From NCBI RefSeq assembly GCF_003711515.1, contig NW_021167084.1, positions 2,273,932 to 2,337,931 on the forward strand: 64,000 bases of DNA, in the 5' to 3' direction. Made by a program: the position numbers and the translations under genes. Numbering within the stretch: position 1 is the stretch's first letter; every line of letters starts with the position of its first letter. Of the stretch, positions 18,899-55,182 are shown piece by piece. This stretch comes from Sodiomyces alkalinus F11. Lineage: Eukaryota > Ascomycota > Sordariomycetes > Glomerellales > Plectosphaerellaceae. Below the pieces are notes generated by a model. It was not told the origin of the DNA, searched no databases, and saw only the letters and a list, made by a program, of their open reading frames with translations.

Positions 18899-19475
18899 CT
18901 AATTAGTCGAAACACTGACGGGACTCGACCGTCCCATCCTCTCGAAAATGCTGCTGGCCTTCCTGCGCATCGAGCTGCTCTCCTTCGCGCCGCCCGCCGA
19001 ACCAGCCGCCTCCGTCTCACCGATGCCCGTCATCTTGATGAAGGAATACCCCCTCTTCGAAACCGGCGACAAGGGGCTGACCAGATCCGCCGCCTCCGAC
19101 TGTTGTTTTTCTTGCTGTTGTTCCTTTCTTCGCCCTTCTCCCTCTCCGCCTTCTTGTTCTTCTTCCTTCTCTCTCCGTGGGCCTTGGAGCGGCAAGACAA
19201 GGTCGTCATCATCATCGTCGTCGTCATCTTCGTTCTCGCTGTGACTCGTCGCAGAACCCATCCCGTCCAATCCGCCCCACACGTCGCCTTCCATGTAGTC
19301 CAGATTGAGAGCCAATAGAGGTGGTGTGTCCTTGCCCCTCCGCCGCCGAAGGAGCGTTTCCCCATCGACTTCGGGCACGACTTGCTCCCCGTCCTTCTCG
19401 ACAATAGGTTCCATGGCCGGTCCCACCGGTGGCGGCACCATGATCGGTGGTGCTGGCGTAGGTGCTGGGATACCG

Positions 19476-19511
<36 letters not shown>

Positions 19512-22500
19512 AGTTGTGGCTGCGGTGGCGAGTGCGACGGCGTCGACTGCGCCGACGTATTGTTGTTCTGCGTCGCCGTCTTTCCATTGCCATCCGAGTG
19601 CACCGGCGGCACGCGGTGCTGCGAAAACGGGGTCCTGTTCGTCGGAACGCACTCGGGAGACGACCGACCGCTCCCCGTTCGCCCCGGTCCCTTGTCCTTG
19701 ATGACCGAGCTCAGCCGCTTCAGACCTTTACTAAGGGACGACGTCCGCGGCCCGAACCCCGGCAGCCGCTTGCGCGTACGCTCTTCGCGGTCCCCCATCA
19801 TCTTCCTCGCCATGAGCTCGAGCTGCGCCATCATCGTCGGGTGCGCCACCACCTCCTCCATCGTGACCGTCACCTCCTCGAGACCCGGCACCCCCGTGTT
19901 GGGCAGCTCGCGGTTCATGTACTGCGCGAGCTGCGACGCCGGAATCATGCTGCCCCAGAGGTCGTAGAAAGCCGCGTTGTGCAGCTGCGACTCGGGCACT
20001 CCGAGACTGCGAGGGTCGAGAACCTGCGTCCACGCCGCCGCAATAAGGGCCTGGATCGCGTAATAATGCTCCGTCGGGATGTTGTGGGCGCCCAGCTGCG
20101 CCTGTGCAGTCTCCACTTCCGGCTGCGACAGCGGAATTTGCTTGGTCATGGCCGAAAACTCGCTACCCGACGGGACCAGCGGGTGCATCATGGAAACCGA
20201 CGTGAGGAGCTCGATGTTGGAACACAGCATCTTAAGAGTCTCAATCGCAAACGGCGTCGGGACACGGTGCTCGCAGAAAGTGAGCGACATCTCCGCCGTG
20301 TCCGGCTGCGGCTTTCTCGACCGGACGAGGACATCGAAGACATCTTGAACCGCCGATTCCTGGATGTTCAGCTTGCAACTCGCCGATCCGAGCTTGAAGC
20401 TCGATGTCGGCAGGCTGCTATCGTGAGACTGGTGATGGACCGCCGTACTGAATCGGGTCCAGTAAGGGAGCGCCGTGCAGTCCTGCACCATATCCAGCCA
20501 GCCCATGTTCTCGAACTGAATCCCCGTCACGCGCTGCCCGTGCACCACCGACATGAGATCCATCGGTGTCGTGTAAGAGTGGCCGAACCGGACGCGGACG
20601 GGGATCGTGTTCTTCGCCGGCCCCAGCACCCCCGACGCGTTGGCCCCTTCCGCCAGTTGGATATGCCGCCCCTCGATGATCTCGCCGAATAGAACGTCCG
20701 CCGACGCCGAGAGCTTGGCGAGCACCATGGCCCACGCCGACTTGACCACAGTGTCGAGGGAGATCCCTAGGCTGGCCAACGAGGTTATGGCGAGCGTCTG
20801 TCGTATCGTCTTGACCGACGAGCTGGTGCTAGCCGGCTTGCTGTGCGCAATCACCTGCGTCATGCGGGCCCCGTCCAACAAGCTCGCCCAGTACGTCCGG
20901 GCACCCCTGTGGTGGGCGAGCTGCGCCGATCGCACCAAGTCCAAGAAAGTCGGCCGCGGAGCTTGGCTCTGCGCCCCCGCGTAGATCTTCTTCAGATCCT
21001 GGATTAAGATGGCAACCGACGCGTCATCGTACTGCGCTTTCGAGAGGCGCATAATCAGCGTAGACTGCTTGCCCGACTCGAGGTAGAAGAACCGCGTGAC
21101 CGGCGTGCCCAGCGTGATGGGCTCCGTCTGGTCCTTTTTGATCAGTCGGTCCGCGAGGTGGGAAAGCCTCCAGCTAGGGCACTGAATCTTTCTGAATTCG
21201 GGTTTGAACAAGCGCAACGCGATCTGGTATACCTTGCGTTCGTGCACAACGAAGGCCGTCTGGAGGATAGGATGCATCACGCAAAGGCCTAAGCATGCCG
21301 CCTCCAGCTTCTTCGAGCTCTCGATTCCCGAGAAGCTAAAAGTGAGGTAGCTGATGTCGCCGCGGTCCTTGAGTAGTGCCAGCTCGAGAGATCGGATCTG
21401 GGGCGCCGTGGCTTCGGCAACGTCCTTGATAGCATCGCGCTCGACTTTGAGCCGTGGCAAAACGACCTCTTCGATGAAAGACTCGGGAACGAGACCCTCT
21501 GCCTCCTTCCGCGTCGGAGATTCCTGCGCAGTGGTAGCAGGGGCTTTGGTTTTGGGATCAACAGCGGGTTCCGGCGTCGCCAATGTGATGCCCTGGCAAA
21601 GCCCAGTCAGAGAAGCGCCCCCCAGCACGTCCTGAATAGACACCGTGAGCCCTTCCTTGCGGCAGGCCACCGCCACTCTGGCCGCTAGGTAGCCACTGCC
21701 CCCGAGTTTACGAAAGGTTTGGTTACCGTCAATGGTGGCCTCGTCGACTTCGAGGAACTTCGCCCAGATCGATCGCATGCGCTCCTCAACCTGCGTCAGA
21801 GGCAGAGGTTTGACACGAGAGTCCCGTGCGTGGTCCGGTGATGGCGCGTCGGAAATAGCCGACAAGGCTTCCCGGGATATGCCCCTCACCATCTTTTGAA
21901 GTTTTCGTCGGTGGACCTTCATCGCTGTCGTCAAGGGGAGGCGCCTCACCGGGATGAAGACGGACGGGATCATATGGGCCGGAAGCGTGTTGCGAAGAGA
22001 TGTCTCGGCAAAGTTCTTGGCCAGATAGGCTCGCTTCCTCGTCGTCACGCTCAAGTTGGTCACTTCCTCAGGTCCGTCAAACAGCTTGTCAAGCTGAATG
22101 AAGGCCGCCAGGAGCTGGGTGGAGCCCTCGAAGCTGATCGACTCGACTGCTACATCGACTCCCTGGCCGAGGCACCTCCGTAGGTGTTGCTCGACCTTGG
22201 AAGCAGCCACAACCTTCCCATCAATGGTGATGTCCTGCCGAGAGCTCGGCAGGAGTTCCATAGTACCGTCCTCCATGTCCCGGACACGCTGGCTTGTCTT
22301 GATGTACCGTACAAGTTGCGGGCCATCCTGAGAGGCGACGGCCAGTTGCTGCGATAGGGCCATGAGAGCCTGTCCAGGTACGAATTTTTGGGCGAGCGTG
22401 GGGCTCTCAATGCAAAGTTCACCGATGGCCCCTGTAGGCACAAGCTTGCTCGAGTCTTCCGGGTTGGCAATCCAAAGCTTGCCGAGGAACGGCTGCGCGA

Positions 22501-25500
22501 GGCGTTGGAGGTCCTCTGGCTTGGCCACTTCGAGGACGGAAATGCCAAGCGGGCAGATCTCCAAGCAGCCATACGCCAGTAGGACCTTAGTGGACCGCAA
22601 CCAGGGGGCGCAGGTGTCCTCGTCTAGACCACGAGTCCGGAAGCATGTCACCTTCAGAGACGGAAGCGATTCGGGCTGTAGTCTGCGGGCAAGGATGGGA
22701 GTTATGTAGGTCCAGGTCACTTCCATGCGCCGAATGGCCCCTTCAATGTCGCGCTTCCGTTCCTCTGCTGACGGGATACAGACACAACCGCCGTGCACCA
22801 GCGTCGCCAGTGTCTCAAATAACGATATGTCAAGGCTGAAAGAGGAGACTTGTAGCACACGGCTGTCCTGGTCAATCCTCAGGGGCCCGCCTTGAGCCAG
22901 AAAGGCGGTGGAGAGTGCGTTGTGCGAGTAAACGAATCCCCGGAGCTCCTTGGATCGGCCAGAGCCGGCCGGGAACAGGATGCAGGCGGCGTCGTTTTCG
23001 GAAGCTTTCCGCATCGGCGCATCAGAGGGGATCTGAGTCGAGAAAAGAGCCTCGTTGATCACGAGGACGCCGTCCTCGGGCAGATGCAAGTTGGGGTTGA
23101 TCATATCGGTTGCTAGAATGACAGGAGGAGCTATCTGCCTAATAACGGCCTCTGCCATGTTTCGGTCGTCACCGTCCACGGGGACAAAGCAACCGCCAGC
23201 CCTTTTAAGACGATGCAACTGTCAGCTGTGCCATGGTTGCAGAGGGTACCTGTGGTTGGGATGGACCGGGGACGGGGACGGGGACGGGGACGGGGGGGCG
23301 GACTCACTTCATGACGGCCAGCATGCTGACAATGGACCACCGGGTCTTGCCGAGAATCACCGGTACGGCCACGCCCGGCCGAACACCCCGTTGAACAATA
23401 TGAGTAGCCAAGCGTTGCACGAGACGTGTGAGCGTTTTATATGAGAAATCGCCGTCGGCAGCACAAACCGCCTGGGCGTCAGGCGAGGCCCTGGCTCGAT
23501 TGGAGAACAAAGAATGAACGCAAGGTTCGAGCAGCTCGATCTTGGTCGACCTAACAAGTGCGCCATTCTCCTCGACTGAGAGATCCAGGCCCCCCACCGA
23601 AGTGGTCGGGTTGTTGAGGATCGACCTAAGAGCCTGGCCGAAGGCTCGTGTGACACTCCAAGCCTGCGTCAAGCTCAAGATGCGATGCGAGATGCCACAG
23701 GCAAGTTGTCCGTTGACGAACATGGTGAGGAAAGAGATATCGTAGGCAAAGGTGCTGAAAGATTCGGCGCATGAGAGGGACAGCTGAGGCCGCGTGCTGG
23801 TAAAGCGGCTCTTCAACTCGGGAGGATCCTCGACATATGTCATACAGGTGTTAAACAACTCCTCATCCTTGAGACCTAGAGCGTGTTCAATCTCGGCGGT
23901 GGAGACATGCTGATGTTGGAGGCAGGCCCTGAAATCTTCCTCGGCGTCTCGCACGACGGCTTCGATGGACTGGTACGCCCAGAGGTCCATGAAACAGGGA
24001 ATAGTGTTTTCGAAACACCCAATAGATTGATGAAGGCCGTGTGGTGCGCCTTTTCCATCACGCCCAGGCGTACGGTAACCAAAACAAACACGGTTGGATC
24101 CAGTGAAGGCACGAACGACGAGAGCCCAGGCCAGGCGCATGACGGTGGCACGACTAGTGGCATACTGGCGGCAGAACTCGTCCATCTGCGAGGCAGTAAT
24201 GTCAATCGAATAATATGTCTCGCGTGTGTGCTTCTCGTTCGTAGTCAATAGTCGAGGAAAATAACATGGGTGGACCTCACGGAGCCGACCATGCCAGAAT
24301 GCTAGGCTACCTTCGCGTCGTGCCGAGTAGAGGTAGTGCATGCAAGCCGTGTGGGACGGGTCGAGCAGGCTCATCGGTGTCTTGCCAGAGTTGTAAATTC
24401 TCTTCAGATCCGCCATGAGAAGCTGGAGGCTGGGCATCTGAAAGAAAAGGTTAGACGCAGGAACAGGAGGAAAGAAAGGAGAGAAAGGGAGAGAGATGAG
24501 CCCCGAGGGGGGGGGAGGGGGATCAACAAAACACTCGACTAAAGATGACAAACCAGATAATACTCACATCGCAGAGAGCCTGGCTGGCCTCGAGTCTGAG
24601 GTAGGTGCCCGTGGGGGAATCGCAGACGGAGAGCCGATGGCGGGGTTGGGCTGGGTTAGCGGGCATAGGAGGTAGGGCCCTGAGAGCCGTGATGGGATCG
24701 TCTCCTGTGGCGGCGTCGAAGAAGAGCATGGTTGGGGAACACCTGCGCAAGATGACCTGGTCGAACAAGCCATCCTCGGTGATGCTGTCGATGAAGACGG
24801 TTCTGAGGGCCGGGTATCGGGTCACAATCTGTTCCCAGACAGTGCAAAGGAGGGCCTGATCTGCTCGCACCCCGTTGAGCACGGACAACTCGTAGATGCA
24901 CGTGTTGTGGCCGACGTCGAGAGACTGTATTTGGCTGATCAGAATACATTGTTGCGACGCCGTCACCGGAAGAACGTCTTCGATGTCTCGCGCACTGGTG
25001 AGGCCCAGAGCGAGCAGCCGATCGGTGTTGAGCTTGGCTAGGCCCTCATACGTGGTGTTCAGGAGCGGAACGTCGGCGAGCGTGAGTTCCTGGGCTCGAT
25101 ATCGCAGCTTGCCGATGGCTTCGTACAGGACATGCTCATAGGTATGTATCCAGTCAGCGATCTTGTCTTGGTATCTGGAGTGGCGGTTGTAGAGAACGTG
25201 GACGTTGGCGCAGCCGTGGTCGACGGTCACAGAGACTTCGAAGAGTGCCATCCTGCTCACCGAGGGTCCGTGATCGGAGAAGGCCGACCCCAACGCCCTC
25301 ACGGGCATCTCCATTTGCTGTAGGGCGCCGTTCTCTCGCTCGAGCTGTTTTGACGAACCGGCATAGGTGAAAAGAATCTCAAAAGGCCACGCCTCGGAAC
25401 ACCGCGTTTCGGCATAGGGCCCGAAGCACCTCGATGCGAAGTACTTCCATCCGCGATGGGACGTCGACCTCCTCGTATCTTTGAGATCGCGCAGCATGTG

Positions 25501-27576
25501 GAGACAATCCAGGTTGTACGGCTCCTCACTCCGGAGACCAATGGGACACAACGAAGTGAACCAGCCTACTGTTTCGGCGATGTCGATTTCAGGACTCCAC
25601 AGCTCCCGGCCATGCTCTTGATTCCAGATGGTCGGCGGGGGTCGGTTGGGAAAGGTCTGGATGAAGGATAGAAGAAGGGCGGTCAGGTAGATGTCGGCAG
25701 ACTCGGTGCGGAAGACCTGGTTGCAGGTTGTGTGAAGAATGGATGTAAGCTCGGAGCTGATACGGAAGCCCGTCTCGGCGGCCTCGTTGTAGGTATTCAG
25801 TGAATCTTTGAGGCCCCAGGAGTCCGAATCACAGCTCCGGAGCGAGAAAGGGATGGTAGCGTCGTCGCTTGTCCTCTCGAAATCTTTCTCTTGTAGCTCG
25901 TTCCAAGTCTGGAAGGGCATCGAACGCTGGGAGAACAAGATGCCTTCACGCAATAGCTCGTCGAGGTCGTGTATAAGAATGCGCCAAGAGAGGCGGTCGA
26001 TGACCAGCTGGTGGGCCACGAGGAAGACCATCTGCTGGCCATCATACATGTGGAATTGGTCGACTGCAAAAACAGGACCATGCTCGATGTCGATACGAGC
26101 CTGGGTTTGTTCCATGACCTTCAAGACTTCGTCGTAGCCGGTAACATCATGATAGCCAAAGCCAAAAGATCCTTGGACGTCCGGCAAGATGCGCTGAGTC
26201 CATCCGTCTGGGCCGAGGTTGAAGCGGGACCTCAACATGGAATGATGGCCTACGGTCGTCCGTACGGCGGCGTGGATGTCCTCGAGGGTAGCGCTTCGGG
26301 TGACGCGTAAGAGTACGCTCTGGTTGAAGCGGTAGTTGCCGTCGGCTTTCCTCCTCTCGTCTGTCCGGCTTCCGGTCGGGGTATCGAAATAGAGCTGCTG
26401 AATGGGCGACAGCTTGAAGCACTCGAGGGACTCCTCGTTCCAGCGGCTGACCGAGTCGCCCTTGTGCGAGGCCAGGGAGGCGACCTGCGAGAGCTTGGGG
26501 CTATTGAGGACGTCCTCCGGGCGGAGGGAGACGCCCTGGGTCCGACAGGCGGCCACGAGGAGCATGGTTGAAACCTCATCGCCCCCGAGCTGGGCGAAGG
26601 AGAAGTTCATGCCAACCTGGCTCTCGGGCAAGCGAAGAACTCGACTGACAGCCTTTTGGATGGTCCGCTCCATATCGGTCAGGGGTTCCTGGAAACGCTC
26701 GTGAAACTCGAGACTGGTGACCTGGCGATACATGTCCTCGTTCATATTCTGAGCCCAAGTCTGCAATTTGCGGCGGTCCACCTCACCCTGTTGGTTGGTG
26801 GGCATCTGGTCGAGGACGATCCAATTGTTTGGTGTCGCGAGTTGGCGGTCTGACTGCTCGAGGGCGAGGCGGATAGCTGCGACTTGGCTCCCGGCATAGT
26901 GCATCTGGGATTGAGAAATGACGTGGACGTTGGAGAGGCTATATGAGGACACGTTGGGGTTACTCAGGCTGATGAATGCAACAAGTTTGTCCTCGAGCCA
27001 CCCCGCCTTGGGCCTGATGAGAGCTGCGCCGGACACCTGAGGCGTAGAGAGGATGAGATTCTCGACGGCCTCGCGGTCGGCGAATGTATGGGACGGGGGG
27101 CGGTGTGGTTGGGACTCTGGATCTGGGGAGTGGGCGGGGTCGTCGCCGCTCGGTCGAGGTGGGTCTGGGATTGGGTCGGCGGGCGCATCGGAGGGATCGT
27201 TATTGCTATGGTCTGAGTCGGGTTCTTTCGATGCGATGGGAACAAGACGGGTCTGGAGTTCGGTGATGGTCTGGCAGCGGAGGATGTCGGTGGTCTTCAG
27301 TCGTAGGCCCATGGACGCACATTTGGAGCTCAAGGCACGGGCCGATTCTTTGTTGCCGCCGAGGTGGGTGAACGAGTCCAGCAGATCGACCGAGTCTTTC
27401 GGAATGGCAAGTATGTCGGCAATAGCGGAGAGTAGGCGCTCCTCGTCTAACATTTCTGCAGTGGGTTGTTGTTGTTGTTGTTGTTGTTGTTGGTCGTCTA
27501 GAGGTGCCTCTGGTGGATCTGGGTGGTCGGGAGCGCCCTCGGGCAAAAAGGGTCGTAGGATGGGAGACTCGGCCAT
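18899..27576 (-). CDS. Degenerate nonribosomal peptide synthetase (probable pseudo-enzyme)
   Basis: Three exons, 27576-24568, 24437-23308 and 23201-18899, 2813 aa. Order: carrier-like T1 (41-110), C-terminal A subdomain alone (163-290), T2 (300-370), E-like domain (384-840), C1 (865-1290), A (1295-1820), T3 (1845-1915), C2 (1955-2370), disordered tail with polyQ and poly-Asp. Spliced junctions rebuild family motifs (ALCD-MPSLQLL in C1; VMK-AGGCFVPV, motif A2). Key residues are missing throughout. The carrier loops read LGGNKES, LGGDEVS and LGGSGYL, so none has the phosphopantetheine Ser of LGGDS. The E-like HH motif is HQLVID, C1 has SQALCDM and C2 SKAQYDD, so each lacks the catalytic His. 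Motif A7 TGD is TSQ. The frame has no stop or frameshift over 8.4 kb of coding sequence, which suggests retained protein function without peptide synthesis. The NRPS fold family is certain; the role is unknown. Confidence 0.85.
19480..19509. repeat. (CTG)10 trinucleotide repeat encoding polyglutamine
   Basis: In the C-terminal disordered tail of the NRPS-like protein; reads as CAG on the sense strand and encodes about ten glutamines. Confidence 0.95.
23268..23291. repeat. (GGGGAC)4 microsatellite in NRPS-like intron 2
   Basis: Four perfect hexamers lying inside the second intron (23202-23307), 11 bases from the donor. On the sense strand it is a (GTCCCC) run. Confidence 0.9.
27465..27491. 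repeat. (GTT)9 trinucleotide repeat encoding polyglutamine
   Basis: Near the N-terminus of the NRPS-like protein; CAA on the sense strand, encoding a Q9 tract at residues 29-37 ahead of the first carrier-like domain. Confidence 0.9.
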
Positions 27577-29017: not shown

Positions 29018-29554
29018 TCTAAAAATAGTAATCAGAGGGTTCTACGTACACGCTAATCGTAGGGATAGTAATTCCTCATAATTAAATATATGATGATAAT
29101 TAAATATATACGTAAGGGTTTATATACTATTACTTAAGTGGACACGGCGTATAAAAAAAGACTTAGAGCGTACGCTTAAATAAAATCCCACACTATAGCG
29201 TACTATTATTATTATTCCTTCCTAATTACATACGATATATACGAAATTCTATACTACGCTATATAATCCGATATAATAGCGTCTGGCGGAGACTTAATAT
29301 ATCCTATCTTAATAATCGATTATACGGTTATATTCTCTAAGAATTAATAGCTAATAAGCTATCCCGCCTATTAAGCACCTAAGCCTAGTATTATACGCGT
29401 TAAACGCGAAGATACGTCTACGTAGTCGGATAAGTCCGTTATTAATCTAACGGATAGAACGCCTCCCCGTAAAGAGCGGGGCCAGGACGTCTCGTATATA
29501 AGTGCACTTTAAATTCCGGGTATAGAAGCTCGCGCGCTAATCTATACGCTTAGA

Positions 29555-30379
29555 GACGGCGAGGCTAAGCGTAAAGTCAGTATTACGCAGACGAAAAGAA
29601 AGAAGTAGCCGGCCCCTATAAGGGATATTAGTATTATACTATTTAGTTATAAATACACGGAAAAGATTATCAGAAGCGTGCCCTTTTAGGAGATTAAGAC
29701 TATTACTAACTAGAAGGTTATTAGCCGAGTCGCTATTTTACTCGACCTCCCGTACTCTAGCTATTAGTATCTAGTTCGATATATTATCGCCTAGTTTAAT
29801 ACGTAGTCGGTCTAGTTCAAAAAAGACCTTACGCTGTTTCCCCCTAATAACCGTAACCCGAAAAAGATTCCGCGCTACCGCGATAAGACGTATAACACTA
29901 TTAGCCTCCGCGCGCTTCTATATAAGTCTAGACTAGGAGTTCTAAAAGATTATTATCTTAACTTCCTTCGTATAACGTAGCTCCCGGCTAAAAAAATTAA
30001 TACTAATATTTCACGGAAACGCCCGGGATAAAAACTAGCCGCGTAGACTAATACCGATCTAGATAAGGCCGTGCTAATTATAACGAAAAAGGAAATTCTT
30101 CTCGTACCCCGGATAACCTAAAATAAGAAAAAAAAGGATAGTATAGTAACTATAGCTATTACGCTAGAGGTAAAGACGGAGGACTTTAAGGATATAAAGG
30201 TTAAGTAAAAGGTAAAGGTGGAGGAAGAGCTAGACGGGGAAAAGAGAACCCGCGCTAGTCGAAAAGTGGTTATATCTTTACTAAGTATAGACCTTCGCGA
30301 CCGTATAGCTTCGGCCGGGGCTAAACGGAAGCGTATAATCTCTAAAGTCGACGGAGAGGAGAATAAAAAGGAAGAGTAA
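29555..30379 (+). pseudogene. RIP-killed reading frame encoding a basic protein
   Basis: One frame runs about 275 codons with roughly a dozen in-frame stops, every one TAG or TAA and none TGA, as expected if CAG and CAA glutamine codons were turned into stops by C-to-T change. Between the stops the translation is rich in Lys and Arg with sensible residue use (for example the segment IPRYRDKTYNT), and it ends in an acidic-basic tail before a terminal TAA at 30377. It is probably a remnant of an element-encoded DNA-binding protein. I do not recognise a transposase catalytic motif. Confidence 0.5.
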
Positions 30380-33300
30380 ATAGTATTAGGTAGATATTAC
30401 TCGCTATACTCGCTATTTCTAGTTTTTACTTCTAAAATATTATTATCCGTGCCTAAAAGTGCTTCGTTAACTACTACACCCTCTTACTTGAAGAAGTTCT
30501 TAATTAACGTAATTCCTCCGTAAGGAGTAAGGAGTAGCGATAGTGATAGTTAGGTTTTCTTATAATCGTATAAGGTTAACCTCTTCCGTATATACTTATA
30601 TAATAGTAAACCGGGATATTCGCGGCCCTATATAAGAAGAATTAGTAATAAATCACTAGCCGACTTTTTAACCTCTAAGTAAATTTATATAACCTCTTCT
30701 AGAAGGTATACTTCTAGCTTTATAAGATCCTTTATAAGAATATTTTCCACTATACGAAGCCGTGTATCGTCGACCCGAATTTAGTAGTCCGGAGAAGTCT
30801 GGTTATATAGAACCTAAGGCTTACCGGCTATAATATAAGGTCTAGACTTTTATACGCGAATTTTATAGGCGTTATACACTTATATAAAATAGGCCAAGTC
30901 TATACGAAGGAGAGGTATATATATATAGAGTAGCGTAATCCTATTAATCAGCGAGCGTCTATTAAAAAGGTTATATTCGGTAAAGTAGATAAAAAACTCC
31001 TATAGTTAGGTTAGTATACTAATATATAGAAAGAAATAAAGGTGTATATACCCGCTAAAACGCGGACCGAGATTAGTAGAGTCTATTCTACTAAGATTTA
31101 ATCCGCTAATTATAAATACTCTTACTAAATACCTAGCAGTCTTTAAACTTAATCGGAACCTCCTGCCTAAGAGCGTTCTTCTTCGTACGGGAACCTTATA
31201 AGAGATACTAGTAAATACCGGCCGTAAGAGTTATTTCCTTTCCTCGGTCGGATCGTATAGACCGGGGCAGATAGCTAAGTTATCGTGGCTCTTATATTAA
31301 TATAGCTATAGCTACTCTAGGCTAGTAATACCGTGTAGAGCTATAGCCTAGGCTTAAACGTAGATATCTATTTACGATATCTATTTAACTATACTAGTAT
31401 TAGCCTAAGAGTATATAAGGCTTATATAGTACCCCCTCCTTAGTTTAAAAAGGGCAGCGATTATTCTAATTCTTTAAGACCACCTATATTCGGACTAGCT
31501 ATAACTATTACTTAATCTACGTCTATTTACTCTCTAACTCTCTCGCTATTACCTGTTTACTCCTTATAACTACTTACCTAATAGATAGCCTTTTCTATAA
31601 TAATAATAATACCTCGCTTTTACCCGTAATAATAGCGGTAACGCGATTTATAATAATAGTAATAGTATCGTCTATAGTAATAGTAATAGCCTTTTCCGTA
31701 ATAATAGCAGTGCCGTTATAGTCTTCCGACTTAAGATTAATTTACTTACGGCTATACCTTATAAGATACGCTATATATAAGCTATTGTACTATCAGATTA
31801 AGTACTATAGATAGATTATAGACGTTTACTACTTTATTTACCGATACTAAGGCTTATAGTATCTTAATTCTACTATTAAAAGTCGTATCTTTATAAAAGA
31901 TAACGGCTTTCATAGTAATAATATATATATTAGGTATAGTAGCTATATACAGAATCTATTTAAGGAATAGTATCTAATATAATAGCTAATTTACGCCTTT
32001 GGTTCTAGTCTTTATAGGCGGTTTCTTTAAGCTTAGATATTATATACTTTTATAAAGAATCTATAGCCGTATATATATATATATAAGATAAGGCTAATAG
32101 CTGTGTAGGCCTTTATACGACGTTTTCTACTTATTTAAATAGTATAGGGTTTTATTATATAAATAAAAAGTAGTTTTAAAGATTTTAGACTAAATAAATA
32201 TAGGTAGATTAGCTTTGATCCTTATAGCCCTCGCTCTTCTCTTAATAATACCTTTAATCTATTCTATAACGCTATTTAAATCCTCTAAATATAATATAGA
32301 TAGCTAGCCTCTTACCTCCTAAGTAACGAGGAAAGTAATAACTTCTAGTTACTAAACTATCTCTAAATCGGTCTATATAATATATCGCTTAAGGTTAAAT
32401 TAGCTTAGTTAATAGAAAGGAATACTCCTTATTATAATCTTAATTATATATTCCTAAAAGGGTATACTACGTCTTCGGTAGGATAGAATCCTAGCCGCCC
32501 CCTCGCGGAGGTATTAAAGTCTAATACCCTTATAGGGCTAAAGCTAATACGTGCGTCTTTTATTATTATTACGGCTAGAGTAATAGGTATAATAGGTATA
32601 GTATTATAAAACTAATCTTATTAAGACACCTTCTTTACCTTACTCGCTATAACGGACTCTAATCTTTTTTATATCTCGCTCTCTACGATCTTTATAATAT
32701 CTTCCCGATCACGCTAGCTATAAGGGTATATATCTAGCCTTATAAAGTAATAGGTAGGGGTAGTATAGGGGCTCTTATAGATCTTATAAGGCCTCCTTAT
32801 TATAGGAGGGATAGTCTTTAAGGATATATCGCGGGAGGGATAGTATTTATAAACGTATCACTATATAAGCGCTTCTTAATATCTTTATTATTAGTAATAG
32901 TATCCTCTATATTAGGGAGGTGTCTAAGAGTATTAAAGGTGCCTCTCCTAACTCTAGACTTTATAGTAGTAGATTAAAGGCGTCTTATATTATTAAGAAT
33001 AGCCCTTAAAGCCTTTATAAAGTTCTTTATCATTAGTTTATTTTCCGTACTCTTATCGTAGTTATTTACTCGGTAGTTATTACTCTATTTAGGGGCGATA
33101 GGTCTAATAACTCTTAATATATCTTTAACCTACCGGTCTACGCTTATTAGCCCTAAAACGTATATATATTTATAGTATATTATCGTTATTTTCTAGCTTA
33201 TAACCTACGTGTTGATATTCTTAGGTATCGCCTTTATAAATAAGGTATACTATTAATATAGCATTAGAGTATTCTTATAAAGGTTTATAGGGGTTAGTCC

Positions 33301-35963
33301 CTATTACTTATAAAAAAGAATATCCCACGCTTATAGGCTATCTACGTCTTTATCTTATAGCTATATAAGAAGATTATATAACGTACTATAGATTATTACT
33401 AAGATAAATAAGTATAATTTATTAAGCTCTTTTTACTACACGTCGTAGTTATCGTTTCCCTTATAATATACGCGGCGATCTTATAGGTTACGTGTGCGTC
33501 CCTATTCGGAGAGGTCGCTAATAAATATAAGAATCTTAATTAGTAGTTCCTTTATTACGGCTATAGTCTTTTTACGAGTAGTTATTATTAATATTATTAT
33601 TAAATAATATCTAAGTATATTTTATAATTATATATAAGCCTTTAGCTTAATACCAGAGCTCTACTATACTATAGCTATACTTATCTTATACTTAGATATA
33701 TCCTTGCTTTATATATAAGACTACCTTATATATTAAATATCTAATAGTCTACTATTAAGTATAGTATTATATCGTAGTATAACGTAATAGACTATATCGT
33801 ACGACCACGACTTTACTACCTCCGTTTAGGTTAAATATAATACCCCGAATCTCAGAATCTATTCTTCTTTTTCCTTATATAAGTTATATACTACGAAGGA
33901 ATCTATACTTCTTCGTTCGTAATAATCTAAGTTATTAATATTAATTCTATTTCTATCTTAATTATCAAAAGTTATATCTTTTATACCGGCGGCTATAATA
34001 ATAATAATAGCCGCAGTAATAGTAGTAATAGTAATAACCGTAATAGGGTTTTAGTTTAAGGGATTAATAGCGTTATCGCCTTTTATTATAATAGTAGAAG
34101 ATAAAGTAGCCTCCTTAGCCGCCTTAAAGTTAACGATAAGGGCTTTATATTTATAAATATTAAGCAGTATAGGCTTAAGAAATAGATACGTATTAGCCCT
34201 CTTATCACTTATCTTTAGATTAAGATAGTTATTCTAGTAGGTACTAGATTTACTATATATCGCGCGCTCCTATATTACCTAATCCCTTTAGTTAATAGAA
34301 GTAGTAATAGTTACCTTTTACTTAGTATTAGATACATTATAGGATATCTTTTCTTACTTATATATCGATTACTTAATAGGTCGGTAGGTTAATTAATAAC
34401 TTAATTACTTTAATTACGTTAATAGCAGTTATTTAAGAGTGCTTAAAAATACAATTACTTTTATAGTCAAAGTATAGAATAGCCTAGTACTATGTATTAT
34501 TTATATACTATACTATAAACCCGGCTTATATCCATTACACGTTTAGATAGCACGTATAAAGTAATCCTAATAAAGCAGAAATCTTATATATATATTATAT
34601 TAAGTTATATTTATATAAATCTCCTATACCCTTAATTTAAGTGGTAAAGACTTTATTATAAGTATTATATTATTTAAATAAGGACGAGTATAAAGGTTCT
34701 CCTCGGGACACCGGGTTTTCTCCTCTATAGCTACTCGTAAAGGGCCGTATAGCCTAAATAGGCTCTTATAAATTAAATATACTAATAAAGTATTATAAAT
34801 TTATAAATATATATATAAGCGTGCCTTTTAATTACTTAGTAAAGGTAGAATAATTAAACTGCCGAAACTAGGTATAGGAGGTAAATATTAGTAGGATTAT
34901 CGGGTATTAACTTTACCTTCTTTACCTTTACGTTATACGCTACTTTACGGCTTTTATATAATATAATTAATTTAAAAACACTTAACTTTAACTCGTTTTA
35001 TTATATTATACTTATATTATATCAAATATAAGATACTTAGTCTTTATAGTATACTGCTATATAAGACTTTATAGTCTAAATTTTATTATATTGACTTATT
35101 TTTACTATAAATCTTAGCTAAAGAATACTCTACTTATTAATATATTATAGTATTATTTTAATTATAACGATAGTATACTTATAGAATATAGGGCCTTTGT
35201 ATATGATCTATAAGTAAAGATATTAGTTATTTAGTATAATAATCTATATATAATAGTAATTAATATTATTACCTTAATAGTTATAAATAGTATATAGGAA
35301 AGTATACTATTTTTTATATAACTATATATATATCTTAAGAGTAATTAGCGTAGCCTATTCTTTATAGTCTTAGTATTATAGATAGTCCTTATATATATTA
35401 GATAGCTTAATAATTAGACTTTATTATAGATAGTAATTTTATAGGCTATAGTTATAATTGCTATAATAGCTATACTAGTAATAGATACTTTTTAGTTATT
35501 CTAACTAAGTAAAGCCTAATTATTACTATTAAGTATAATTAGTTTACTAATTAATATATTGATAGAATAGTATATAAAATATATTATTACTTATAAAGCT
35601 AGCCTTATATTCTAAAATATACGAGTTATATAGCTTTTAAATAATTAGGCTTATATATTTTATATACTTTATTAAATAAATATAAAATATAAATAATATA
35701 TATAAATAATATATTTCTATTTTAATATATATTTATATATATTATATATATAATATATCTACGGTTTTTATATTATGAAAATTTAAATTAAAAGAAGAAA
35801 AGGTATTATTATTAAAGCGGTAAAGAAAAGCCGGCCGCTACTATACGAAAAAGCAAAAAAAAAAAAAAACTCCTACTACTCCTCCTTAGTAAGCTCCTCT
35901 TTATCCGACGGCACTAGTATATATATTAGTACGCTGGCGTATATTAGGGTGTAGCGTTAATAA

Positions 35964-36158
35964 TCACTTACTATCTTTCGCGGCCGCGATTAACGCCTTT
36001 CTAAGGCGCCGAATATAGCGTTTAGGGATACCCTCTAGGTTAATCGTGAGGGCGGTGTTAGTCTTAGTGGTGGGGGTATCGTCGGGGCCACGTTTACGCT
36101 TATTCGAGGGCGTCTTCTTGTTCGTATCTGGTTCTATTAGTACGTTATCGTATAGCAT
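35964..36158 (-). pseudogene. Surviving 64-codon frame near the right end of the element
   Basis: The only open ATG frame over 60 codons inside the element. It begins MLYDNVLIEPD, carries a nuclear-localisation-like NKRKRGPDD segment and ends in RRLRKALIAAAKD. A GTAAGT donor-like sequence overlaps the stop, so this could be exon 1 of a gene whose later exons are destroyed. The surrounding island (about 35,800-36,400) is less AT-rich than the rest. Function unknown. Confidence 0.35.
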
Positions 36159-37223
36159 TATAGATAAACTTACTAACTAAAAAGTAACTAGATAAGCCCG
36201 CACTAATCGTATAATTACCGTAGCCCCTTTTACCGAAGACTTTTAGGACTACGTATGAAGTTAACATGCCTTTTCTCGCCGCGTATTTATCGTAACGATA
36301 CTTGCCTTATCGCTTATCGCCGTATATCTACGTAAATAAGCCCGAAAGGGCTTACGGGCACGTTATATTAAAATCGGGGAATTTAACGGCGGCCCCCTTC
36401 TAGTACTTACGGCGTATACTAATCCCACATTAAATCTATATATATATTAGCGTATATTATTGTATAGCGATATAGTAACACGTATAATAGAATTATTCTC
36501 GCTAACATACTATAAGACAGTACTAGCACACTTCTTTTATAACACTATATATTAAATCATTAGTAGCTAGCTATATAGAAGCGTGTACAGGAACGTACGG
36601 TCAAGGATAAACGCGTCTAACTCCGGCGAACCTAGTATTCCCTTTAGCTATATATCCGGCAGCGGAGGCAGCTCCTGACTATTAATACGTTAGGGCTATT
36701 AGTACTATTCGGATACGTTTATAGTGCCACGGGAATACTTACTTCTATTCTTATATAAATAGGGCTATTTATAACTATTCTTTAATATACTCTAATAGTA
36801 AACCTATCACGATACACGTTAGTATTAATCTAGAACCGTGCTACGACACTTTCCCCTATATAGTATAGTATAACCACTAAAACTTACTTTTCGCCCGCGT
36901 AAAATTAAAATCTTAGCCTTCTAAACCCGTAGAGTCGAGCCCTAATACTAGAATTAAAGGATCTATAGTGCGCGGAACCGTGGGTGGGGGGTAACTTACT
37001 AGCCTATAGTTATCTGGAGAGGGAAAAATAAGATTACCTCTAACCGTGGCGTTATAGTTATAGTAGTGAAAACTTTTTCCTTATAGCTGATTAGTCGATT
37101 CTATCGTTATAGACTTTTTATATGGTATAAGAGTATATAATTATACGACACTGTACGATGGTTCCCGGGTGTGTACTCTATTGCTTATGGTGTGTGTCTA
37201 CTAATTTTTTTTATTTTTTTACG

Positions 37224-46733: not shown

Positions 46734-48062
46734 TCAGGCCTTAATGGCCGGAACCTTGACCTCCGGTTCAACAATCTTATCCGTCAAGACCGGGTTCAGC
46801 CCCTGCCTCACAGTCTTGTTGGGGTCGTTCAAGCCATGCGCCTCGGGTCCCATGTCGAAGCTGGTGGTCCGCCTCATGTCCCGGCGGTACTTGCCAAAGT
46901 AGCTCCCGTCGTAGACGGCGCGGTGCATGACGGCCGTGTTATCCCACATGATCATGTCGCCGTCCTGCAGCCACTCGACGCGGCAGATGTACTTGGGCTG
47001 GGACGCGTGGTCGAGGAGCTGTTTGACGAGCGCCTGCGAGTCCTCGAACGACATGCCGTCGATGTGGTGCACGTAGGTCGGGGTGAAGAGCATCTTGCGG
47101 CCCGTGGCCGGGTGGTTGGTCACCATCTTGTGCTTGGACATGGGGTAGTCCAGCGGCTCGAGGTCCTTGTAGTAGTCGGGCGCCGCGAGCTTGCGGTTGT
47201 GCCACATGGAGTTGTTGCCCACGAGGCCATCGATTTTCTGTTTCATTTCTTGGGGGAGGTCGTCGTATGCCTGTCGAGCATCCAGGAACTGGGAACGTGT
47301 TGTGGTTTGGCGTGTCAGTTTTTTTCTTTTTTCTTTTTTTTTTCTTTTTCTTTTTCTCAAGCACAGGTCACGGACGGTCCGATTTGTTCGCTCACCTCTG
47401 TATCGCCGCCGGTGCCCTTGGGAGGCAGCTGATGGCCTCGGAGAATGGAATAGCCCGACCGTCTCGAGTTGAACGCCAAATCGGAGTGCCACAGCGCGTT
47501 GCCCTTTGGTCCCAGTTGAGCCTCGTTAGTCAAAGCGCTTTCGAGGCAAGAGAGAGGAAAGAAAGAAACGAAAGAAGAAGGAAAAAAGAAAAAGAAAAAG
47601 AAAAACGGTACTGGGAACGAGGAGCCGAGGAGCGCGGCTGGACTCACCTTCATCATGGCAATTCGTGCTGGATCGCTGGTGGTGATCAGGTTGTCGTCCG
47701 GGTCGATGTTGCTAACATCAAACATCTCCACATCAGGAAGACGGAGCTTACGGCCCACCTTCAGATGCGGCGACATGTCGTCGAGCTCTCCGAAGAGAGC
47801 AGCAAAGGCGATATGACGCTTGTCATCGAGTCCAGTGTTGCGGAAGATCAAGACGCCATACTATCATTCTCCGTCAGTGGTCAGTCTTCCAAATATGAAG
47901 AGAGCCCAGTGCATGTGTTCAGGCGTATCGAGACGGGCTAACCTTGTCCATGGCCTTCTGGACTTGGTCCTTGACTTCCTTGGAGATTGGCTTGCTCCAA
48001 TTCACACCGCGGCACTCGGCCACGAAGGTATCGTGCTGGGGGATTAATTCAAGTTGCGACAT
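46734..48062 (-). CDS. TauD/TfdA family Fe(II)/2-oxoglutarate dioxygenase
   Basis: Four exons: 48062-47943, 47860-47648, 47503-47396 and 47288-46734; 331 aa. All introns are phase 0; the first uses a GTTAGC donor. Splicing joins ARIAMMK to GNALWHSDLAFN, giving the iron-binding H-x-D in a position typical of fungal TfdA-like enzymes. The distal histidine is in MWDNTAVMHRAVYD, and the arginine pair in DMRRTTSFD is the likely 2-oxoglutarate anchor. Family members hydroxylate sulfonates, phenoxyacetates or other organic acids using 2-oxoglutarate and oxygen, often releasing part of the substrate as an aldehyde. The substrate here is unknown. The gene is divergent from the cyclase gene across a 795-bp gap, consistent with shared control in a catabolic cluster. 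Confidence 0.9.
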
Positions 48063-48857
48063 GACGGCTTGGGCGGTAAAGATGGGCTATGATAGTTGAA
48101 TGAATGCACGATCTAGGTGCGTGGGAGTTTGGAAATCGGTGTCATTGGATTCATCCCAGCCCTCTCAATCCGTCGAGATGACCTCCATAGCCATCGAAGT
48201 AATGGCATAATATACTCTCGACCTGCATGTTGCCCCAGAATCGGGGTAGTCCAAGACAAAGGACGCACGATCTAGGATATACACATTCCGAATCCCGTCC
48301 TCGTGGATGCTGGAGTGGGCTTCATGGGTAATTCGTCGCCTGACAACAATGAAGCGTCTGCCATGCAAACAAAGGCGCCGTCCAATGCCAAAGTCCGCCG
48401 CCATCTTTGCGTTCCGGACTGGCTGTACTACACAGGCGCAAAAAGAAAGAAAAGAAAGAAAGAAAAACCAGTGTGGCTTTCTATGATAATGGCGGGACCT
48501 TTGTGTGTCAAGATGTCGGTCTCCATTGTCCGTGCCGGGGCGGATAATGAATAGCCTGCTCGCCGGCTCCTAGGCCCTGAGGGACGTGTTGTGCGCAAGC
48601 CCGGATATGTGGCGCTGTGAGATACAACTCGTCTCCTGACCGGCCCGTCGCAAGGCTCGAGACCAGTGCCGGAAGGCGTGAGTGAGTCGTGTGCGCTTAG
48701 AGCATCCGAGCGAGAAGCAGAAGACAGAAGAGGGGGCAACGGAGCCCAGATCTGAGATAATAAAAATCATGAATACAACTTGAATCCAACGGCATAATCG
48801 AATAATCAACCACATAACCGTCTCTCCCTCTCTCTCAGGAATCGTTTGCATGTAAAT
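48063..48857. promoter_or_regulatory. Divergent promoter between TauD and cyclase genes
   Basis: The 795-bp gap separates the two start codons and must hold both promoters. GC-rich CGG/CCG triplets occur around 48,535-48,575, the kind of half-site used by Zn2Cys6 regulators, but I cannot fix a spacing-defined operator. A CT-rich run (about 48,822-48,837) lies shortly before the cyclase start. Confidence 0.45.
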
Positions 48858-50349
48858 ATGAGATTCGATCCCAACGCCGACGCTTCTGCGTTGCCTAAAC
48901 GCTCCGAGCTGCCATTTATCCCTGGTGCGCCCCCCGGCGCTGCGTGGTTCTGGGGCCCAGAAGACCAACATGGCCGTCTGAACCTGTTGACGCAGGAAAG
49001 ACTTCTAAAGACAGTCGGAGAATGCGTCAAGACGGGACAGGTAATCAACTTGAGGTGAACCCCAGCCTTTTCTTGCTTTCTCCTGATCGTTGCCCCCCCT
49101 ACCCTAAAACCCGCACGCTGGTGCTGATCTGGACAACGTGGATAGCTTGCCATACGACATTCCCGGCCCGGCGCTTTTCAAGCGGGAAACATTCCACCAC
49201 AAGGTCATCAAGATGGCACCTGGGATTTACGATGAAGTGTTCGAGCTGAACCCCCAGTCGAGCAGCCAGTGGGACGGGTTCCGTCATGTAAGGGACATGG
49301 AGCCCCCGTTAAGACAACATGAAGAGAGAGTTTTCACCAACCTGATAGGGGTGATGCTAACTCGTGCTAGATGGCACATCCCGAGACAAAGCTCTTCTAC
49401 AACGGGGTAGGACTGTCTGCGATCCTGCGCTGCCGCTGCGCCGCGCACTCCGCCCGGACGAGAGCAAAATTGCTAACATCCTGTAGCTTACGAGTGAAGA
49501 GATTGACCAAGTAGATAAGAAGGGGAACCTCGTATCTCCTCGCTGCGGCGCAGGCGCATGGGGCGAGACCGGTATCGGTAAGGCATCCGGATTATGGCCC
49601 CCTTTTGACGCACCGTACACCCGCCCACTTTCTGGCTGACTCTGACTCTCTCTTCCTTCAGTCGGCCGAGGTGTCCTTCTCGACATGTACACCTGGTCGG
49701 GAGAGTCGTACGACCCTTTCACCACCCATCCGATCACGAGGGCAGACCTCGAGGCATGCGCCAAGAGCCAAGGCATCACCTTCCAGACGGGCGACATCCT
49801 CTTCATCCGCGCGGGTTGGGTGAAGAAGTACATGTCCCTGGATACCGCCGAGCGGGAGAAGCTGGCGGCTCTTCCGGGCGCTTTCGACCACACGTACGCC
49901 GGCATCGATGCCACGCCCCAAATGGTGGATTTCTTGCACGACCACTACTTTGCGGCCGCCGTGTCGGACCAGATCTGCTTCGAGATGTGGCCACCCAAGT
50001 CGCTGGGTGAGTCTGCGTTGTTGCCCCCCTGAGTTCAAAGTGAGTAAGGTAATGGTAATGGTAGCTAACAGTGGCCCGTAGCCGAGTCGCTCCACGCCTT
50101 CATGCTCCCCCTATGGGGCATGCCCATTGGCGAACTGTTCGACCTGGAAAAGTTGAGCGAGGTCTGCCGGACGGAAAAGAGATACACCTTTCTCCTGTCG
50201 AGCTCACCGGCCGTTGTTCGAGGTATGTGATGCGGCAATGAACCACATGGCATTGACCTTGACTTCTTACGTTCTGAATACTAATTTTAAGGAAACGTGC
50301 TCTTGTAGGAAGCATTGGCAGTCCAGCGAATTCTATTGCCATTCTCTGA
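48858..50349 (+). CDS. Fungal putative cyclase (kynurenine formamidase-like hydrolase)
   Basis: Seven exons: 48858-49054, 49146-49287, 49371-49406, 49487-49577, 49662-50006, 50082-50222 and 50309-50349; 330 aa. All junctions hold frame, including a 36-nt exon. The protein begins MRFDPNADASALPKRSELPF and contains NPQSSSQWDGFRH, the form that fungal cyclase-family members show where the bacterial metal-binding HxGTHxD motif would be. GVLLDMY and FQTGDILFIRAGW are further family blocks. Relatives hydrolyse cyclic imides, formyl-kynurenine or similar ring or amide bonds; with the bacterial metal motif altered, the chemistry is uncertain. It shares a divergent promoter region with the dioxygenase and is followed by the EthD gene on the same strand. 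Confidence 0.88.
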
Positions 50350-51529: not shown

Positions 51530-51643
51530 AGAGGACGGAAATAAAAGAGAAAACAATAAACGGAATCCATCAACTTATGCAACCCTATACCCTTGCTAGC
51601 ATTCGCTGCATGTGACAGGAAAAGGAGGAAAAGGAAAATCACA

Positions 51644-55007: not shown

Positions 55008-55182
55008 CGGTCAATAGCAAAAAAGCGTGATTCGCATGTAGAGTGAGCAAGAACACACCCGATGAAAGCGTGATCTGCCGCAATTCCAGGACAGAATTAT
55101 AGCTCCTGGTAGGCATAGGCATTATTGAGCGTGCAACCTCCTTCCCAAAGCCTTCAGTAGACAATAATTTCCGGCAAAAAAC

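What the first reader, a model, noticed from the sequence alone, without database searches (positions are those of the whole stretch)
18899..27576. A 2.8-kilo-residue NRPS in which every domain has lost its key residue, yet the frame is intact
Seen: three carrier domains have LGGNKES, LGGDEVS and LGGSGYL where the phosphopantetheine Ser of LGGDS is needed; the E-like domain has HQ for HH; the two C domains have SQ and SK where SH is expected; motif A7 TGD is TSQ. Established: these residues are required for thiolation, epimerisation, condensation and adenylation. Inference: not one domain should work, yet no stop or frameshift interrupts 8442 coding bases. Neutral decay would not spare the frame while hitting each active site, so this looks like a protein kept for a non-synthetic role (scaffold, carrier decoy or regulator). 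I know of no described family of this kind, but could not search.
Basis: partly seen in the sequence, partly recalled or inferred. Interest (0 to 1): 0.88.

Follow-up and report, generated by a model that had tools for sequence, protein, structure and literature searches.

The report
Conserved dead peptide synthetase in fungi
This fungal gene encodes a giant peptide-making enzyme whose catalytic sites have been lost, yet many related fungi keep the same dead protein, so it probably does some job other than making peptides.

Summary
The gene (27576..18899, minus strand, 3 exons, 8442 coding bases, 2813 aa) equals SODALDRAFT_185845 of Sodiomyces alkalinus F11. It is no one-species pseudogene: 189 of 191 retrieved relatives form one family, whose named members I place in Sordariomycetes, and a 63-row tree follows the accepted order-level relationships. 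Family-wide, Ser is rare or absent at the carrier sites (T1 4/165, T2 14/156, T3 4/188, T4 0/186); the P-loop (1/188), TGD (1/189), C2 His (0/188) and E-domain Glu (0/177) are gone; no row has both P-loop and TGD. Yet 301 columns stay at least 90% identical in 170 near-full-length rows. Aligned canonical relatives and all 32 other carriers found in this genome keep the residues. P0233, a 5480-aa NRPS, carries in its last two modules an intact relative (36% identical), except for its terminal carrier. So this is an NRPS descendant that seems dead for synthesis and is kept as a folded protein, with a disordered tail bearing recurrent phosphosite-like motifs. A scaffold or regulatory role is inferred, not shown. 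HQ in the E domain is a minority state: 155 of 175 rows keep the second His.

The parts
18899..27576 (-). whole gene: three exons (27576-24568, 24437-23308, 23201-18899), 2813 aa, pseudo-NRPS
   Evidence: splice and translation; identical to P0001 = SODALDRAFT_185845
27232..27444 (-). T1 carrier, Ser position K76 (LGGNKES); residues 45-115
   Evidence: Ser in the column in 4 of 165 rows (P0114, P0119, P0120, P0151, reading LDSDSS where shown), LGGxS in 0 of 167; AF2 blocks at pLDDT 93-96
26707..27081 (-). remnant of an adenylation domain: C-terminal subdomain only, A10 Lys replaced by E265; residues 166-290
   Evidence: AF2; Foldseek matches to NRPS A-PCP structures with low whole-model TM
26461..26679 (-). 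T2 carrier, Ser position E334 (LGGDEVS); residues 300-372
   Evidence: Pfam PP-binding; Ser in the column in 14 of 156 rows, LGGxS in 13 of 147
25012..26424 (-). E (epimerisation) domain; HQLVID (H523 to Q) and EGHGRE Glu to Gln653; residues 385-855
   Evidence: Glu in 0 of 177; second His in 155 of 175
23547..24993 (-). C1 condensation domain, catalytic His is Q999 (SQALCD); residues 862-1300, spans intron 1
   Evidence: Pfam; His in 13 of 176, all Colletotrichum rows
21791..23519 (-). A (adenylation) domain; P-loop lost (LFPAGSGRSKELRG), A7 TGD is TSQ; A10 Lys and A5 Glu kept; residues 1310-1850, spans intron 2
   Evidence: Pfam AMP-binding; A7 Asp in 1 of 189 and P-loop pattern in 1 of 188
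21566..21778 (-). T3 carrier, Ser position G1883 (LGGSGYL); residues 1855-1925
   Evidence: Ser in the column in 4 of 188 rows: P0011, P0016, P0055, P0073
20081..21445 (-). C2 terminal condensation-like domain, catalytic His is K2101 (LSKAQYDD); residues 1966-2420
   Evidence: His in 0 of 188; AF2 of C2-T4 pLDDT 88.5, pTM 0.87; best fold hits are TqaA CT structures
19796..20038 (-). T4 terminal carrier-like domain, LWGSMIP, Ser position M2465; residues 2435-2515
   Evidence: Ser in 0 of 186; helical bundle in the model; WGS also ends P0233 and P0299
18902..19795 (-). C-terminal tail (2516-2813), taken as disordered from its composition, with SKGLKRLSS (19706-19732), DLVSPLSP (19064-19087), MRRKASSIFERMG (18932-18970), poly-Q and an acidic run
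   Evidence: motif counts against shuffles; positions
24438..24567 (-). intron 1, GTGAGT..CAG, 130 nt
23202..23307 (-). intron 2, GTGAGT..AAG, 106 nt

Best explanation
A conserved pseudo-NRPS. An ancestral multi-modular NRPS resembling P0233 (motif order A-T-E-C-A-T-C-A-T-E-C-A-T-C-T) gave rise, before the Sordariomycete orders split, to a protein reduced to T-(A remnant)-T-E-C-A-T-C-T, in which phosphopantetheinylation, adenylation, epimerisation and condensation are each disabled by loss of key residues. The domain folds were kept, and a tail with recurrent short motifs is present. SHOWN by sequence: gene structure, residue losses, family-wide spread of the loss, an intact relative, kept folds (prediction and conservation). 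INFERRED: it makes no peptide; it was retained because its folded domains bind partners (a scaffold or regulatory protein); the tail is a site of control by kinases (RRxS/T-like, SP and acidic Ser patterns, recalled consensus).
For: Losses shared by 189 family rows, with scattered single exceptions; no row has both the P-loop pattern (only P0175) and the A7 Asp (only P0190). In 146 aligned segments of 115 canonical relatives the residues are kept, gapped cells left out: T2 Ser 134/135, E His 135/136, E Glu 138/138, C1 His 146/146, A7 Asp 139/146, T3 Ser 88/88, C2 His 86/86. Same-genome control 32/32 carriers. Tree of 63 rows: family separate from two canonical rows, orders in the accepted arrangement. 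P0233's last two modules are the best-scoring intact match (1503 bits, next 919), lie next to the family in an 83-row tree (96 and 98) and are intact but for the terminal carrier. 301 columns at least 90% identical in 170 rows. AF2 of C2-T4: pLDDT 88.5, pTM 0.87. GC3 0.719, neighbours' ORFs 0.587-0.772, and codon fit best in frame. Tail motifs: [SE][ML]T.G[ST] in 72 of 184 tails (shuffled mean 1.0), [VIL]SP[LMV][ST] in 106 of 184 (shuffled mean 2.6).
Against: No functional datum: no expression, localisation, partner or knockout was seen for a proven orthologue. dN/dS not computed. The E-domain HHxxxD is kept in 155 of 175 rows and the A10 Lys in 159 of 188. Ser stands in the carrier column in 4 (T1), 14 (T2) and 4 (T3) rows; in three Colletotrichum rows T3 reads LGG[QR]S[FY]L and C1 keeps its His, so residual chemistry there is not excluded. 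T1 and T2 have no column at 90% (0 of 71 and 0 of 73). The protein diverges fairly fast (P0001 is 35-46% identical to rows of other orders, Colletotrichum aside). Tail motifs are patchy: in the representatives tried, Hypocreales have basic 0/9 and [SE][ML]T.G[ST] 0/9, Xylariales VSP 1/7; tails are related sequences, so shuffles overstate significance. P0233's segment is itself most identical (42%) to the other half of P0233, the 83-row tree is rooted at midpoint, and P0233's higher score partly reflects its longer match.
Confidence: 0.8

Rival explanations
1. Trans-acting partner or decoy of an active NRPS: the dead carriers and C/E domains bind an intact synthetase (for example a siderophore synthetase) and modulate it, without any other cellular role.
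For: The domains keep NRPS-type folds, the natural partners of which are other NRPS domains. N. crassa has only four NRPS genes in one census (SID 1, AAR 1, EAS 2; PMC2823734 Table 1 passage), which limits possible partners.
Against: The tail motifs are not NRPS docking elements that I know of. No NRPS was seen among 20 other ORFs of the window. No interaction data.
Confidence: 0.25
2. Partly active enzyme: the E (or C1) domain still acts on something, with the rest as a scaffold, because HHxxxD is kept in most relatives.
For: E second His in 155 of 175, E Asp in 175 of 175, E Ser in 174 of 175; A10 Lys in 159 of 188; C1 His in 13 Colletotrichum rows, three of which also have Ser at T3.
Against: The E-domain Glu is absent in 177 of 177 (Q 155, K 10, R 10, H 1, S 1) and present in 138 of 138 canonical segments. 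In Sodiomyces the E His itself is gone. Few rows have any carrier Ser.
Confidence: 0.1
3. Ordinary decaying NRPS pseudogene that happens to be open.
For: Many catalytic residues lost; some lineages show further loss (the T2 motif is not recognisable in most Hypocreales rows shown; E second His lost in 20 of 175).
Against: 170 of 189 rows are 2350 aa or longer, and 301 columns stay at least 90% identical among them while catalytic columns vary; codon fit best in frame. Caveat: database rows are predicted proteins, which favours open frames.
Confidence: 0.04
4. Gene-model or assembly artefact.
For: None found.
Against: Spliced protein equals the public model; introns are GT-AG; an 87% identical copy in S. 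alcalophilus and many further rows from other genomes and metagenomes.
Confidence: 0.01

Closest known systems
P0233: unnamed 5480-aa four-module NRPS (metagenome contig, no organism given); residues 3083-5423
   Same: 36% identical over 2404 alignment columns to P0001 171-2525 (1503 bits; next best 919); same domain order; same WGS terminal carrier; next to the family in the 83-row tree
   Different: Motifs intact in A, C, E and four of five carriers (in its second E domain the first His of HH is Ser); two further modules upstream; its chain ends 110 residues after the start of VWGSLL, without the family tail
Pes1 / NRPS1 of Aspergillus fumigatus and NRPS4-type synthetases (ChNPS4 class)
   Same: Many named neighbours of the canonical outgroup P0106 bear these names; P0232 (A. 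fumigatus NRPS1) also ends in a carrier-like domain without Ser at the motif (LGGDVF)
   Different: By pattern counts intact; not the nearest relative (with the Neurospora core as query 689 bits for P0232 against 1509 for P0233). Pes1 biology is recalled, not read here
NPS6-type siderophore synthetases with a degenerate domain
   Same: Fungal NRPS with a degenerate A domain (dA-T-C), described in PMC2823734 (passage)
   Different: There one domain is dead inside a working enzyme; here every module is hit
Catalytically inactive X domains of glycopeptide NRPSs (recalled)
   Same: C-fold domain without catalysis that works by recruiting partners
   Different: One domain in an active line; no call of mine tested a relation
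VdNrps3 of Verticillium dahliae
   Same: One of three V. dahliae NRPSs, described as divergent with long branches and without characterised relatives (PMC6502550 passages); perhaps this gene
   Different: Identity with P0005 not tested; the paper calls the analysed clusters potentially functional
NCU04531 of Neurospora crassa
   Same: By elimination the likely N. crassa member (PMC9239088 and PMC2823734 passages; which other genes are siderophore types is recalled)
   Different: Not verified; the five GCP-family hits of this genome, the family I recall for its neighbour div-19, lie on other contigs

Membership tests
Functional NRPS | carrier with phosphopantetheine Ser | tested here: not met
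   0 of 4 carriers in P0001; family, Ser in column: T1 4/165, T2 14/156, T3 4/188, T4 0/186
Functional NRPS | A domain with P-loop and TGD | tested here: not met
   P-loop pattern 1 of 188 covered (P0175), TGD 1 of 189 (P0190), none with both
Functional NRPS | condensation His (HHxxxDG second His) | tested here: not met
   P0001 Q999 and K2101; family C1 13/176 (all Colletotrichum), C2 0/188
Functional NRPS | E domain His and Glu | tested here: not met
   P0001 Q523 and Q653; family His 155/175, Glu 0/177
Functional NRPS | NRPS domain homology and fold | tested here: met
   Pfam Condensation x3, AMP-binding, PP-binding x2; AF2 and Foldseek for two stretches
Conserved pseudoenzyme | loss of catalytic residues shared by orthologues | tested here: met
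   scattered single-residue exceptions
Conserved pseudoenzyme | fold under constraint | tested here: met
   301 columns at least 90% identical among 170 rows, by protein conservation only
Conserved pseudoenzyme | dN/dS well below 1 | not testable with these tools
   no coding DNA of another fungus was available
Conserved pseudoenzyme | demonstrated lack of activity and a non-catalytic function | not testable with these tools
   needs bench work
Pes1/NPS4-type or P0233-type NRPS | intact four-module line | tested here: not met
   about two modules remain, none intact

The most novel reading that the evidence does not exclude
A whole peptide-assembly megasynthase was converted, before the Sordariomycete radiation, into a dead but folded signalling scaffold of roughly 2,400-3,600 residues that is controlled by kinases through its tail: a zombie megasynthase family spread across the fungal class.
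Probability: 0.4. Interest if true: 0.9.

Novelty: new variant of a known kind. Interest (0 to 1): 0.76.

Why it matters
Genome surveys count such genes as peptide synthetases and look for their products. If the family is dead for synthesis, members in seven fungal orders (orders assigned by me from genus names) are predicted peptide lines that make nothing, and a widely kept fungal protein of unknown role awaits a first experiment. As far as my ten paper searches show, it would also be a first case of a complete multi-domain NRPS surviving as a pseudoenzyme, with an intact relative (P0233) for comparison.

Tried and rejected
Decaying pseudogene: rejected on family-wide conservation. Sequencing or model error: rejected. 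Fusarium NRPS12 as the same gene: rejected, because that clade belongs to the ChNPS12 group (PMC6480918 passage), and the label 'NRPS12' on some hits looks derived from A. fumigatus fmqA (one table row of PMC6737921 pairs nrps12 with fmqA; the rest recalled). Fusarium NRPS3 as the same gene: considered, not settled. Synteny with N. crassa NCU04531 through GCP genes: not found. Biosynthetic cluster around the gene: 20 other ORFs of the window scanned, no NRPS, PKS or P450 match; short exons could be missed. Family members outside Sordariomycetes: none named in the two lists, but each list was cut at 120 of 753 and 120 of 377 hits and many rows bear no organism, so absence is not shown. Papers: ten searches showed no description of a conserved dead NRPS; only openly licensed PMC papers are held, and I saw listings and passages, no whole paper.
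Full report
What is there. The window is G000:C6:2273932-2337931 of a 43.4-Mb genome in 22 contigs, and the protein match names the organism as Sodiomyces alkalinus F11. The gene runs on the minus strand from 27576 to 18899 in three exons; the splice gives 8442 coding bases and 2813 aa, equal letter for letter to P0001, the public model SODALDRAFT_185845. Pfam sees three Condensation-type domains, one AMP-binding and two PP-binding domains. Motif reading gives T1 - A remnant - T2 - E - C1 - A - T3 - C2 - T4 - tail.

Which sites are lost in Sodiomyces. All four carrier serines (K76, E334, G1883, M2465), the E-domain second His (Q523) and Glu (Q653), both C-domain His (Q999, K2101), the A-domain P-loop and the TGD Asp (Q1684), and the A10 Lys of the A remnant (E265). 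Kept: A10 Lys of the main A domain (K1808) and the A5 Glu (E1594). That these residues are needed for catalysis is established knowledge, recalled; the equivalence of columns is by alignment, checked below.

Same-genome control. PF00550 has 34 scored hits in the genome (a lower bound); two are T2 and T3 of this gene. I fetched the other 32: all 32 have the Ser, 27 by pattern and 5 read by eye in the output. PF00668 has 17 hits, three in this gene; of the other 14 I held 13, and all 13 keep the second His, 12 by pattern and 1 by eye; one was not held.

The family. Two protein searches, with P0001's sequence and with a Metarhizium member P0118, listed 120 hits each of 753 and 377, 191 different proteins together. 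I set aside two canonical synthetases (P0106, P0111) as outgroups and dropped no other row: 189 rows, of 1547 to 3589 aa, 170 of them at least 2350 aa. Rows whose organism is shown fall, by my assignment of genera, in Glomerellales, Microascales, Hypocreales, Sordariales, Magnaporthales, Diaporthales and Xylariales in the wide sense; many metagenome rows have no organism. Rows are 90%-identity clusters of predicted proteins.

Counts over covered rows. Ser in the column: T1 4/165 (P0114, P0119, P0120, P0151; the first three read LDSDSS, without GG); T2 14/156, of which 13 read LGGxS (P0055, P0067, P0068, P0074, P0076, P0082, P0083, P0084, P0096, P0099, P0101, P0102, P0113; none with the usual large hydrophobic residue after Ser) and one is P0135; T3 4/188 (P0011, P0016, P0055, P0073; the first, second and fourth are Colletotrichum with LGG[QR]S[FY]L); T4 0/186. 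A7 Asp 1/189 (P0190; H in 169, Q in 15). P-loop pattern 1/188 (P0175). E second His 155/175 (else Q 15, R 4, N 1). E Glu 0/177. C1 His 13/176, all Colletotrichum. C2 His 0/188. A10 Lys of the main A domain 159/188. So adenylation is broken in every covered row, and other steps in nearly all, with single residues standing here and there.

Control for the alignment. In 146 segments of 115 canonical proteins aligned in the same way, gaps aside: T2 Ser 134/135, E His 135/136, E Glu 138/138, C1 His 146/146, A5 Glu 145/145, A7 Asp 139/146, A10 Lys 132/145, T3 Ser 88/88 (58 gapped), C2 His 86/86 (60 gapped). The P-loop pattern was met in only 99 of 146, so that pattern is strict or the stretch imperfectly aligned; in whole proteins it is met at least once in 121 of 121 canonical and in 1 of 189 family rows. 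That call also found GGxS-type strings in 31 family rows; one search lists 33 of them, and by position I take none for a carrier site.

Descent. A FastTree of 63 rows (61 of the 189 family rows and two canonical) over P0001 residues 385-2421, 51 of 60 inner branches starred, puts Xylariales apart from the rest, then Magnaporthales (with Thyridium), Diaporthales and Sordariales against Microascales, Glomerellales and Hypocreales, which is the accepted order-level picture (recalled). Vertical descent from one ancestor is the simple reading, so losses present on both sides of the first split (T1, T3, A3, A7, E Glu, C2 His) are best placed before it. T2 and C1 are less certain: T2 has Ser in Xylariales-type rows, and C1 has His in Colletotrichum.

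The intact relative. A third search, with P0106, listed 120 of 1179 hits. Among them P0233 (5480 aa, no organism) matches P0001 171-2525 with its residues 3083-5423 at 36% identity, 1503 bits, against 919 for the next; part of that margin is its longer match, but identity is also higher (36% against 30%). There it reads LGGDSIT, SHLVIDVVS, EGHGREP, SHALTDGGS, TSGSTGEPKG, YGPTE, TGD, LGGDSII, SHAQYDG; only the terminal carrier, VWGSLL, lacks Ser. In a tree of 83 rows (17 family, 66 canonical segments) the sets family + P0233 and family + P0233 + P0299 have supports 96 and 98. Against a firm claim of sisterhood: midpoint root, a long family stem (0.51), a long P0299 branch, and P0233's segment is most identical (42%) to the other half of P0233. 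P0299, of Lobaria immixta, also ends in WGS; its five carriers, five P-loops and five C-type His are intact by pattern, but it shows no EGHGRE pattern. Motif order in P0233 reads A-T-E-C-A-T-C-A-T-E-C-A-T-C-T. The family looks like its last two modules; that T1 is the carrier of the module before, joined by a deletion, is inference.

Constraint. Among the 170 rows of at least 2350 aa, 301 P0001 columns are at least 90% identical, chiefly in E (82 of 471), A (83 of 541), C2 (53 of 455) and C1 (51 of 439); T1 (0 of 71), T2 (0 of 73) and the tail (0 of 298) have none. AlphaFold2 of C2-T4 gave mean pLDDT 88.5, pTM 0.87, best Foldseek hits TqaA CT structures. T1-A remnant-T2 gave pLDDT 81.7, pTM 0.53 with a low-confidence linker; its Foldseek hits are NRPS A-PCP regions with whole-model TM near 0.2. 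In the gene, GC at third positions is 0.719 (seven other ORFs of the window 0.587-0.772), while five stretches that I took as intergenic are 0.469-0.535 GC (one overlaps the end of a listed ORF); codon fit to three window ORFs is best in frame (0.699 against 0.573 and 0.547).

The tail. Of 184 tails of at least 60 aa (189 rows), [SE][ML]T.G[ST] is in 72 (200 shuffles: mean 1.0, maximum 4), [VIL]SP[LMV][ST] in 106 (mean 2.6, maximum 7), a basic [LFIV][RK][RK][LF][ASTP][ST] in 47 (mean 0.6, maximum 3), a C-terminal G[RK]M-like pattern in 46 (mean 12.3, maximum 22: weak). In 41 representatives the spread is patchy: for example Xylariales have the first in 7/7 but VSP in 1/7 and the basic one in 0/7; Hypocreales have VSP in 5/9, the basic one and the first in 0/9. 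Sodiomyces itself has SKGLKRLSS, DLVSPLSP and MRRKASSIFERMG. P0233's chain ends 110 residues after the start of VWGSLL, with none of these motifs that I saw; its gene model is unverified. Kinase reading of the motifs is from memory and untested.

Surroundings. Neighbours are a trehalose-synthase-like glycosyltransferase, MFS transporters, a GCFC/G-patch protein of TFIP11 type, an alpha/beta-hydrolase-like ORF (below its cut-off), a TauD dioxygenase, an HpcH/HpaI aldolase, a Zn2Cys6 regulator and a SAPS protein. No other NRPS, PKS or P450 was seen among the 20 other ORFs scanned.

Literature. Ten searches gave no described conserved dead NRPS; only openly licensed papers are held. Passages seen: PMC2823734 (census; NPS6 with one degenerate A domain), PMC6502550 (VdNrps3 divergent, long branches; its core gene expressed in culture and lower in planta), PMC9239088 (cluster of NCU04531 regulated in germination at 37 C and in sexual development; 126 mutants of cluster genes mostly without phenotype, whether NCU04531 was among them not seen), and PMC10455376, PMC6737921, PMC6480918, PMC3694855, PMC4198257 and PMC9495618, whose passages do not name this gene; PMC10967133 and PMC10455296 held no whole-word NRPS3. 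Identity of VdNrps3 or NCU04531 with this family was not tested.

Verdict. The protein belongs to a family, seen across at least seven orders as I assign them, of NRPS descendants that by known rules cannot run the NRPS cycle on their own, kept as folded proteins. What it does is open; binding partners through the kept folds, under control of the tail, is my best guess.

Noticed in passing
window 29500-37000: A strongly AT-rich stretch (GC down to 0.24 at 34001-36000) begins about 2 kb upstream of the gene; it looks like RIP-mutated repeats (inference). The gene's own GC is not lowered.
   Followed up: no
P0055, P0067, P0068, P0074, P0076, P0082, P0083, P0084, P0096, P0099, P0101, P0102, P0113: In these 13 rows the T2 carrier reads LGGxS, with Ser at the right place but no large hydrophobic residue after it. 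Kept or regained Ser is unexplained.
   Followed up: partly
P0009-P0014, P0016-P0021, P0073 (Colletotrichum): C1 motif is SHALCD, with the catalytic His, while the other covered rows have Q, T, A, E or single others; three of them (P0011, P0016, P0073) also have Ser at T3 (LGG[QR]S[FY]L).
   Followed up: partly
P0114, P0119, P0120, P0151 (Sarocladium-like): T1 column holds Ser; the first three read LDSDSS in place of LGGDS.
   Followed up: no
P0233, P0299 and P0232, C-terminus: Synthetases that look intact by pattern end in a carrier-like domain without the phosphopantetheine Ser (WGS in two, LGGDVF in A. fumigatus NRPS1). A Ser-less terminal carrier may be an old feature of this NRPS class.
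   Followed up: partly
Diaporthales-type rows of about 3450-3590 aa (e.g. P0080): These members have tails of 624-748 residues, about twice the Sodiomyces tail.
   Followed up: no
window 46734-57503: TauD dioxygenase, MFS (TRI12-type), HpcH/HpaI aldolase and a Zn2Cys6 regulator lie within 11 kb, perhaps a small catabolic cluster.
   Followed up: no
P0005 (Verticillium dahliae): One source's name for this protein begins 'Siderophore biosynthesis regulatory p...'; origin of that name unknown.
   Followed up: no
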